Shown here: positions 29,280-31,444 of the stretch, in pieces
How the letters are laid out: the number at the start of each line of letters is the position of its first letter
Position numbering within the stretch: position 1 is the first letter of the stretch
NCBI GenBank assembly: GCA_002791805.1
Contig: PFND01000022.1
Coordinates: 4,250-42,110 of the forward strand
From: Alphaproteobacteria bacterium CG_4_10_14_0_8_um_filter_53_9
Lineage (GTDB): Bacteria; Pseudomonadota; Alphaproteobacteria; UBA2136; UBA6156
Length of the DNA stretch: 37,861 bases
Reading direction: 5' to 3'
Translations under genes and position numbers: made by a program
The notes under the pieces: generated by a model
Database searches by the model: none
The model's input: the letters and a program-made list of their open reading frames with translations, nothing else
What the model was told of the DNA's origin: nothing

Positions 29280-29363
29280 AACCAGCCTTCCCTTAAAAAA
29301 CGTCATGCCGCAGCCCGAAGGGCGAAGGCAGACATGCGGCTGCCCCGTAGGGGCAGCAAAACA

Positions 29364-29527
29364 AAGCGAGCGCAGGGCGAGAGCTCCTCACAAGGCCAAA
29401 GGCCGTGAGGATCGAAGCCCGAAGTCGAGAAGCCATGCTCCAACGAAGGCAACAATCAAAGCAAGCGCAGGGCGAGAGGCTCAACAAGCCCAAAGGGCGG
29501 TTGGGCCGAAGCCCGAAGTCGAGAAGC
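29364..29527. repeat. Two copies (29364-29433, 29459-29527) of a structured repeat with covarying stems
   Basis: Conserved GCGCAGGGCGAGAG...CGAAGCCCGAAGTCGAGAAGC around variable nested hairpins. Confidence 0.85.
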
Positions 29528-29531
29528 GAAA

Positions 29532-29650
29532 TTTAAACGTGAACATATAATGCGCCTTTAGCAAAGCCATCTCAAGCGTGTCACCCCGAGTGGCTAAAAC
29601 CTCAGCAGCTTTGCTGCGCTAGGTTTTAGCTCAGCTCGGGGCTACTTTCT
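29532..29650. repeat. Palindromic element copy A
   Basis: TTTAAACGTGAACA-25 nt-CTCAAGCGTGTCACCCCG, then three nested helices at 29584-29641. Confidence 0.8.
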
Positions 29651-29764
29651 CAACTATTATGATGTCCAAAAAAACAAAGTCCACCCCACTTAAATAAAAA
29701 AAAGCCCCCCAAAGGAGGACACTAGAAAAACACTACACCAAAACGCGGAAGAAGTCAAGAAAAA

Positions 29765-29798
29765 ACCGCTATGCCATTGAAGACATAACGGTTTTTTC
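29765..29798. terminator. Bidirectional intrinsic terminator
   Basis: AAAAAACCG.TATG...CATA.CGGTTTTTT. Confidence 0.7.
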
Positions 29799-30139
29799 TG
29801 AAAAAGGGATTCGCATCACCAGCGCCTCGGGCCAACCCGCCAAGAGAGTTATGGTAGACTCAAGCTGCGCAATACGAAATCCCGCTATGCAGGCGCTCTT
29901 CCTTTGCAAGAAAAGCGATTGACGACTCCGGATGTCCTGCGCGGAAAACTCTCCGCGCAGGATGAGACCATCCGTACTCTGGCTCATCAGAGTGGGTTAC
30001 CCCATTCAGGCAACAGGTTTTTGCCCGCACAGCCCTTCTTCAGCCATGGCCTGCAGCAGCCACCTCCCTCGCAGGAGATTTCTAAAAAGTTAAAGGTAAT
30101 TCCCTAAGCGGGGCCACACCGTCGCAATCCGCACGGTGC

Positions 30140-30170
30140 GCTAAAAAGCAAAAAGGACAATCACAATCCT
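30140..30170 (-). terminator. Possible minus-strand terminator
   Basis: AGGA-ttgtgattg-TCCT-TTTTG. Confidence 0.4.
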
Positions 30171-30278
30171 TCACATGGTACGCGCCATGAGTCTTTTTAG
30201 TCTGGATAAGCAGACATCTGTCTAGGATTTTTTCTGCAAACCGTCGCCCCTAAGGGAAGGGTAAAAGGTAAGCGGGAA

Positions 30279-30306
30279 AAAGGGCGGCTGGTCATCCGCG
30301 CGCCCT
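30279..30306 (-). terminator. Possible minus-strand terminator
   Basis: GGGCG...CGCCCTTTTT. Confidence 0.5.
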
Positions 30307-30339
30307 TCTTGGTTTGCTTCTGACTGCATATCAAGAAGA

Positions 30340-30387
30340 CAAAAACCCCATCATCCCTCGTGAGACCCCGAGTGCGGCGGATGATGG
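30340..30387 (-). terminator. Possible minus-strand terminator
   Basis: CCATCATCC...GGATGATGG-GG-TTTTT. Confidence 0.6.
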
Positions 30388-30569
30388 CCCGTTCTCTCCT
30401 GCGCAATGATGTGTTGCAACATGAACAGGAGAGATCTCGTAGCCAAAATGCCCCATCCATCTTCACGAAGGACAAGGCATTTCAGAATTAAAAGCGCCAC
30501 CCGCAGGTGAGTAACTAATCCTGAACCCTCACAAATCCAGAGTCAGTCAACTGCAAACTCGCGGGCTTC

Positions 30570-30643
30570 AGGCAGAAAAAGAGGCTGGACTTCCCAGGCA
30601 GCCTCTTCGTGGGGCGTTCAAGTCCACGCCTGCCTAAAACAAG
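30570..30643. repeat. Three-way-junction structured element X (contains minus-strand terminator)
   Basis: Minus strand AGGCAG..CGTGG/CCACG..GAGGCTG/CAGCCTC-TTTTT..CTGCCT. Confidence 0.65.
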
Positions 30644-30746
30644 AACATCAAGCTCGCTCATCAAAAGCCATCCGTTCTTGCGGCTGTCTTGTTTCACCCC
30701 CGCCCCGCGCACTCAAACCCAAAGGGCAAGTCGCAGGGCAGGGGGA

Positions 30747-30812
30747 TCAGGAAGGTAGAGACGGTGCCTGACGCCGTCCGTGGTCAGCCCCCACGCCTTC
30801 CTGAAAACAAAG
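30747..30812. repeat. Three-way-junction structured element Y, similar to X
   Basis: Minus strand TCAGGAAGG..CGTGG/CCACG..GACGG/CCGTC..CCTTCCTGA; shares TTGTTTT..AGGmAGGCGTGG with X. Confidence 0.65.
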
Positions 30813-30817
30813 AGATT

Positions 30818-30892
30818 GGCAGGAGATGCAGGACTCGAACCTGCGACCTGCGGAGTTAAGAATCCGCCGCTCTACCGAACTGAGCTAATCCC
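30818..30892 (-). tRNA. tRNA-Lys(CTT)-like with 8-nt anticodon loop, CCA encoded
   Basis: AGGGGAT-TA-GCTC..GAGC-G-GCGGA-TTCTTAAC-TCCGC-AGGTC-GCAGGTTCGAGTCCTGC-ATCTCCT-G-CCA. Confidence 0.65.
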
Positions 30893-30925
30893 CTGCATGA
30901 AGTGTTAAAGATAAATGTTGTAAGG

Positions 30926-31028
30926 TGGAAATGGCAGGAGTCGAACCTGCGTCCTTATGAGGTATTTTAACGGTCATGCAGATACCGAAATACTAGCCTC
31001 TTTGCTCTCCCAACTGAGCTACATTCCC
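30926..31028 (-). tRNA. tRNA-Ala-like molecule with extended anticodon region (103 nt), or a tRNA pseudogene
   Basis: GGGAATG/CATTTCC acceptor with G3:U70 and A73; intact D arm GCTCAGTTGGGAGAGC and T arm GCAGGTTCGACTCCTGC; ~36-nt anticodon loop. Confidence 0.55.
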
Positions 31029-31061
31029 AAAACAACATGGTAAAAGTTAAAAAGGATTATT

Positions 31062-31136
31062 TGGAGAGCCTGATGAGATTCGAACTCACGGCCCCTTCCT
31101 TGGCAAGGAAGTGCTCTACCCCTGAGCTACAGGCGC
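31062..31136 (-). tRNA. tRNA-Gly(GCC)
   Basis: CTTCC-TTGCCAA-GGAAG anticodon arm, GTGAGTTCGAATCTCAT T arm, encoded CCA. Confidence 0.92.
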
Positions 31137-31223
31137 GCACCAAATAAAAAACGTCATAAATGAATGAAAAAACGTATACGCTAAACCTCATTCACCGTCA
31201 ACAAACAAACATGAAAAGAAAAC

Positions 31224-31345
31224 TTTAAACATGAACACCCAAGCTAAGCGAATCCCCTTACTCTCAAGCGTGTCACCCCGGAAGCCAGAAAGCTTGGCAT
31301 TTTTAATGCCGTAGCCTTTCTGGTCTGTCCGGGGCGACTCTTGCA
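31224..31345. repeat. Palindromic element copy B
   Basis: TTTAAACATGAACA-25 nt-CTCAAGCGTGTCACCCCG, then three nested helices at 31276-31334. Confidence 0.8.
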
Positions 31346-31444
31346 AATGATATGGTGTAAAAAAGACTATTCAAGAAGCCCTATTTTCCCAATCTCCTAA
31401 ACTAAAACTTAACATTCCTCAGGTTTTCACCTATTATCGCCAGC

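What the first reader, a model, noticed from the sequence alone, without database searches (positions are those of the whole stretch)
30570..30812. Two similar three-way-junction elements (X and Y) with a compensatory outer stem
Seen on the minus strand: X = TTGTTTT-AGGCAGG-CGTGG(acttgaacgcc)CCACG-aa-GAGGCTG..CAGCCTC-ttttt-CTGCCT. Y = TTGTTTTC-AGGAAGG-CGTGG(gggctga)CCACG-GACGG..CCGTC-tct-ACCTTCCT. The outer stem changes C-G to A-T between copies, the CGTGG/CCACG hairpin is conserved, and the second hairpin differs completely but is still paired. This pattern suggests selection on RNA (or ssDNA) structure. The copies lie just downstream of the aberrant tRNAs on the same strand. I do not recognise the family.
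Basis: seen in the sequence. Interest (0 to 1): 0.72.

Follow-up and report, generated by a model that had tools for sequence, protein, structure and literature searches.

The report
Giant structured RNA beside tRNA genes
The two look-alike RNA elements are real, and they appear to be two modules of one unusually structured, non-coding RNA of about 1,050 bases that sits directly behind a small cluster of odd tRNA genes; it matches no known RNA family and resembles, in size and setting, the large 'ornate' RNAs of phages and tRNA islands.

Summary
X and Y are real and non-random. Both fold as compact three-way junctions on the minus strand. A three-way-junction descriptor finds two in the 1,126-nt block, against 0.007 per dinucleotide shuffle (0 of 600 shuffles had two). 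The outer stem carries one compensatory change, as reported. One correction: in X the conserved CGTGG/CCACG hairpin competes with GGCGT/ACGCC (P about 0.5).

X and Y are not free-standing elements. The whole non-coding stretch 30815-29755 is exceptionally structured: MFE z = -9.5 on the minus strand, and -5.9 with X, Y and the terminator removed. Nine coding controls of the same length gave -3.4 to +1.5. The stretch starts 2 nt after a tRNA with an encoded CCA, ends in an 18-bp hairpin with a T-run, and has no coding signal.

Best reading: a ~1.05-kb structured non-coding RNA co-transcribed with a three-gene tRNA array, GOLLD/ROOL-like in setting. It is not detectably a member of either (no Rfam match). 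I found no homolog in about 800 sampled genomes, phages, plasmids or viral-contig motif scans. Transcription and function are untested.

The parts
30747..30809 (-). Element Y: three-way junction. Outer stem TCAGGAAGG/CCTTCCTGA, hairpin 1 CGTGG(GGGCTGA)CCACG, hairpin 2 GACGG(CGTCAGGCA)CCGTC
   Evidence: folding, descriptor scan, model R1 75 bits
30567..30642 (-). Element X: three-way junction. Outer stem TTTAGGCAGG/(T)CTGCCTGAA, hairpin 1 CGTGG/CCACG (competing with GGCGT/ACGCC), hairpin 2 AAGAGGCTG/CAGCCTCTT
   Evidence: folding, descriptor scan, model R1 60 bits
30697..30744 (-). 13-bp G+C-rich extended hairpin between Y and X
   Evidence: pair probability 0.99; z -3.9 for the X-Y spacer 30645-30745
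30639..30681 (-). 9-bp extended hairpin abutting X on its 5' side
   Evidence: pair probability 0.97
29755..30815 (-). Whole non-coding, highly structured block (candidate ~1.05-kb RNA) that contains X and Y
   Evidence: MFE -462.5 vs -382.4 +/- 8.5 for shuffles, z -9.5; remainder 29810-30560 z -5.9; coding controls -3.4 to +1.5; ORFs score as non-coding
29758..29799 (-). 18-bp hairpin ending in a T-run, likely intrinsic terminator and 3' end of the RNA
   Evidence: inverted repeat, pair probability 0.98
29704..29720 (-). Second terminator-like hairpin followed by T8, possible back-up terminator
30817..30894 (-). tRNA with an 8-nt anticodon loop (TTCTTAAC) and encoded CCA; its 3' end abuts the structured block
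   Evidence: ARAGORN tRNA-???; Rfam tRNA 60.5 bits
30923..31028 (-). tRNA-like gene with a greatly lengthened anticodon arm
   Evidence: Rfam tRNA 45.6 bits; missed by ARAGORN; fold
31062..31136 (-). tRNA-Gly(GCC), redundant with another Gly(GCC) gene on contig C43; one acceptor-stem mismatch

Best explanation
X and Y are two related three-way-junction modules of a single, roughly 1.05-kb, highly structured non-coding RNA (minus strand, about 30815 to 29755). It is encoded as the last member of a small tRNA array. Inferred mechanism: the array and the RNA are transcribed together, tRNA 3'-end maturation just after the encoded CCA (30817) frees the 5' end of the big RNA, and the 29799-29758 hairpin terminates it. 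The RNA then folds into an ornate architecture in which X and Y (about 165 nt apart, sharing the junction strand AGGnAGGCGTGG) act as repeated structural modules, possibly docking through their loops, in the manner of the large GOLLD/ROOL RNAs that also sit in tRNA islands. Shown here: structure far beyond chance on that strand, no coding signal, position and ends, and the two repeated modules. Inferred: transcription, processing, tertiary docking, phage or mobile origin, and any GOLLD/ROOL-like assembly.
For: Whole-block folding z -9.5 (minus) and -8.1 (plus); still -5.9 without X, Y and the terminator; nine same-length controls range from -3.4 to +1.5. Two three-way junctions against 0.007 expected. 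Terminator at the right end of the block on the minus strand. No ORF in the block has a codon signature of this genome: all score negative, below the 5th percentile of true frames, and those tested have no Pfam or PHROG match. The block starts 2 nt after a tRNA CCA. The array is extra to the host tRNA set: a second Gly(GCC) exists elsewhere and two of the three tRNAs are aberrant. GOLLD and ROOL are large RNAs of unknown function often encoded near tRNA islands in phages and prophages (PMC12286853). A mycobacterial GOLLD lies inside a horizontally acquired tRNA cluster with a pseudo-tRNA (PMC6582537).
Against: Single genome: no homolog by blastn in 61 relatives, about 385 class genomes and about 399 phylum genomes, nor in phages or plasmids apart from the tRNAs, nor in viral-contig motif scans. 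No Rfam match even at permissive thresholds, so nothing ties it to a known large RNA. The plus strand is also strongly structured (z -8.1), so the strand rests on the terminator, the tRNAs and the lower energy. Several central helices (30572-30496 and 30268-30034) have low pair probability, so the fold is only partly determined. No expression data.
Confidence: 0.6

Rival explanations
1. The block is not one RNA but a pile-up of independent palindromic elements and intrinsic terminators (REP-like dispersed repeats, MITE-like hairpins, tRNA trailer hairpins) that collected in an intergenic region; X and Y are a duplicated pair of such elements.
For: The genome does carry a dispersed palindromic repeat, and copies flank this very block at about 29578-29641 and 31262-31340. 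Many terminator-like hairpins lie in the region (10 against 3.3 expected). Both strands fold well, as palindromes do.
Against: Neither X, Y nor any other part of the block recurs elsewhere in the genome, unlike a dispersed repeat. Three-way junctions with non-identical hairpins are not simple palindromes. Helices in the 5' and 3' parts are mutually compatible with high probability.
Confidence: 0.25
2. X and Y are stand-alone small RNAs or cis elements, for example riboswitch-like three-way junctions with loop-loop contact or processing signals of the tRNA operon, unrelated to the rest of the block.
For: Each is compact, each follows a T-rich leader TTGTTTT, and each has a 4-bp complement between its two loops (ACTT/AAGT in X, CTGA/TCAG in Y; joint chance about 0.03). 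The second hairpin of X ends in T5 like a terminator.
Against: No copy elsewhere in the genome or in relatives with model R1; no downstream gene close by on the same strand; the rest of the block is strongly structured without them (z -5.9).
Confidence: 0.1
3. It is a very diverged GOLLD or ROOL RNA.
For: Same kind of neighbourhood and similar size (PMC12286853, PMC6582537).
Against: No match to any Rfam model at E up to 5-10 over the block that points to either; ROOL model RF03087 not found in this genome or 20 relatives. No positive control rang, and I did not run GOLLD by its own accession.
Confidence: 0.05

Closest known systems
GOLLD RNA
   Same: Large (often over 800 nt), non-coding, elaborate structure, located in or beside tRNA islands, including acquired arrays with a pseudo-tRNA (PMC12286853, PMC6582537).
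   Different: No sequence or structure match in Rfam scans; no recognisable prophage here; the window genes tested are ordinary chromosomal genes (ruvA, ruvB, tolQ-like, fabF-like).
ROOL RNA (RF03087)
   Same: Large ornate RNA near tRNA islands with kissing loops (PMC12286853).
   Different: No match with RF03087 in this genome; ROOL is about 570 positions, this block about 1,060.
Three-way-junction RNAs with loop-loop contact (e.g. purine riboswitch; from memory)
   Same: Two parallel hairpins off one stem, with complementary loop tetramers in both copies.
   Different: No Rfam match; no conserved junction core beyond AGGnAGGCGTGG; no regulated gene downstream. A lead only.
REP-like dispersed palindromic repeats
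   Same: Short stable hairpins in intergenic DNA; this genome has such a family flanking the block.
   Different: X/Y do not recur in the genome and are branched, not simple palindromes.

Membership tests
GOLLD RNA | Match to the GOLLD covariance model (conserved 3' region) | tested here: not met
   Rfam 15 cmscan of the block up to E = 10 lists no GOLLD. That the library holds GOLLD rests on PMC12286853 (profiles taken from Rfam); no positive control was run
GOLLD RNA | Large non-coding RNA near a tRNA island | tested here: met
   Three tRNA(-like) genes 30817-31136 abut a ~1.06-kb structured non-coding block; that it is transcribed is not shown
GOLLD RNA | Homo-oligomeric nanocage; expression linked to phage lysis | not testable with these tools
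   needs expression data and cryo-EM
ROOL RNA | Match to RF03087 | tested here: not met
   no match in own genome or 20 relatives (no control genome rang); no match in window scans
Dispersed REP-like repeat | Multiple copies across the genome | tested here: not met
   blastn and covariance model find only this locus
Any Rfam 15 family | Score at or above the gathering threshold | tested here: not met
   only tRNA matches in the window

The most novel reading that the evidence does not exclude
A new class of giant ornate non-coding RNA, unrelated in sequence to GOLLD, ROOL and OLE, carried at the end of a laterally acquired tRNA array in a small-genome bacterium, built from repeated three-way-junction modules.
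Probability: 0.35. Interest if true: 0.8.

Novelty: new variant of a known kind. Interest (0 to 1): 0.57.

Why it matters
Only a handful of very large structured bacterial RNAs are known, several turn up beside tRNA islands, and none of those has a known function. A further, unrelated one in the same setting would suggest that tRNA arrays recurrently carry giant RNAs, and would give an independent system in which to ask why. The candidate has sharp predicted ends and two internal repeats that can be probed directly.

Tried and rejected
Homolog hunts that led nowhere: blastn of the block in relatives, class and phylum samples, phages and plasmids; model R1 across relatives and class, whose best outside hits are a terminator-like site in an ABC-transporter operon (G325, 28.6 bits) and coding sequence, judged chance; X/Y motif patterns in viral and genome contigs, whose hits lack the second hairpin or outer stem; other exact block and tRNA-arm patterns in viral contigs.

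A 601-nt spacer in the tRNA array of roseophage DSS3_MAL1 folds with z -5.5, but its relatives carry annotated genes there, so I rejected it as an analogue. I took RF01998 to be GOLLD; it is a group II intron model, so that search says nothing about GOLLD. The weak tmRNA and Y-RNA-like matches at 30842-31028 are sub-threshold cross-hits of the tRNA genes. I looked for an ORF in the block with a coding signal and found none.

Full report
What was claimed. Both sequences are there. Folded alone, each gives the described three-way junction (X -34.9 kcal/mol, z -3.3; Y -29.6 kcal/mol, z -2.7), and the same junctions appear when the whole region is folded (in the slightly different stretch the X hairpin 1 is drawn in its alternative form). 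One detail needs correcting. In X the hairpin CGTGG/CCACG has an almost equally good competitor, GGCGT(GGACTTGA)ACGCC, with probabilities of about 0.56 and 0.43; in Y it is unambiguous.

Is it more than chance? A descriptor for such junctions finds X, Y and one site inside a gene in the whole window on the minus strand. Dinucleotide shuffles give 0.2 per window and 0.007 per 1,126-nt block, and none of 600 block shuffles had two. The descriptor was written after seeing X and Y, so these numbers are indicative. Of 17 shared pairs three change on both sides and one goes from G-C to G-U, with none broken (on an alignment with trimmed loops). With two sequences this covariation is not significant on its own: 71 of 500 shuffles do as well. 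The two copies share the strand AGGnAGGCGTGG and are probably duplicates or parallel modules. In each, four bases of the first loop complement four of the second (ACTT/AAGT and CTGA/TCAG), with a joint chance of about 0.03; this is only a hint of loop-loop contact.

The larger object. X and Y sit in a 1.06-kb stretch without genes between a tRNA array and a strong terminator. The stretch as a whole folds to -462.5 kcal/mol on the minus strand against -382.4 +/- 8.5 for shuffles (z -9.5; plus strand -8.1). Without X, Y and the terminator it is still at z -5.9, while nine same-length controls from coding parts of the window range from -3.4 to +1.5. Helices with probability 0.9 or more include a 13-bp hairpin between Y and X, a 9-bp hairpin abutting X, and 16-bp, 12-bp and 10-bp hairpins further on. 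The 3' end is an 18-bp hairpin running into a T-run at 29799-29758, with a second terminator-like site at 29720-29704. The ORFs in the block score as non-coding against this genome's own codon use, and those tested match no protein family. Some central helices (30572-30496, 30268-30034) are poorly determined.

Setting. Immediately upstream on the same strand lie three tRNA or tRNA-like genes: tRNA-Gly(GCC), a tRNA-like gene with a much lengthened anticodon arm, and a tRNA with an 8-nt anticodon loop and encoded CCA, whose 3' end is 2 nt from the block. The genome has another tRNA-Gly(GCC) and an otherwise ordinary tRNA set, so the array is extra. In three genomes of the same order ruvC lies directly before ruvA (read from the translations); here about 1.9 kb of tRNA and RNA block precede ruvA. 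Copies of a dispersed palindromic repeat of this genome flank the block. This fits an acquired island, but no phage gene lies nearby among the proteins tested, so the origin is open.

Search for relatives. No blastn homolog of the block was found in 61 relatives, about 385 class genomes and about 399 phylum genomes, in phages or plasmids, or at the loci brought in by motif scans of viral contigs. A covariance model of X and Y finds exactly those two in the genome (75 and 60 bits) and nothing convincing elsewhere. Rfam 15 gives no match beyond tRNA at the curated cut-offs, and at permissive thresholds only weak chance-level ones. ROOL is not found in this genome (where no control genome rang). 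My attempt to search GOLLD by accession used a wrong number, so the GOLLD statement rests on the whole-library scans of the block.

Interpretation. The best-supported reading is one large structured non-coding RNA, co-transcribed with the tRNA array, released by tRNA 3' processing and closed by the terminator, with X and Y as repeated three-way-junction modules near its 5' end. Shown: structure, ends, strand preference, non-coding nature, position. Inferred: transcription, processing, tertiary contacts, function. GOLLD and ROOL are the nearest known kind: large RNAs of unknown function, often near tRNA islands, that assemble through kissing loops and other contacts (PMC12286853), with a mycobacterial GOLLD inside an acquired tRNA cluster next to a pseudo-tRNA (PMC6582537). 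The claim is 'works like', not 'is a': membership in either was tested and not met. The main rival is a pile-up of independent hairpins; the lack of copies elsewhere in the genome and the branched junctions argue against it, but only a transcript map or homologs can settle it.

Noticed in passing
29578-29641 and 31262-31340: Copies of a dispersed palindromic repeat (GTGTCACCCCGAG...CTCGGGG) flank the tRNA/RNA block; five copies match the exact pattern in the genome.
   Followed up: partly
30923-31028 (-): tRNA-like gene with intact acceptor, D and T arms but an anticodon arm about 30 nt too long; ARAGORN misses it, Rfam tRNA scores 45.6 bits.
   Followed up: partly
30817-30894 (-): tRNA with an 8-nt anticodon loop TTCTTAAC (ARAGORN reads a four-base anticodon CTTA) and encoded CCA; nearest phage relative is an 87% identical tRNA-Gln of Vibrio phage VPT02.
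   Followed up: partly
31062-31136 (-): Redundant tRNA-Gly(GCC) with a mismatch at the second acceptor pair; another Gly(GCC) gene is on contig C43.
   Followed up: yes
29280-31444: ruvC, which lies directly upstream of ruvA in genomes G002, G012 and G013 of the same order, is not next to ruvA here; the tRNA/RNA block is in its place.
   Followed up: partly
L229:3765-4365: A 601-nt spacer in the tRNA array of roseophage DSS3_MAL1, unannotated there, folds well (z -5.5) and is conserved at 72-78% in three other roseophages, where genes are annotated; probably a missed gene.
   Followed up: partly
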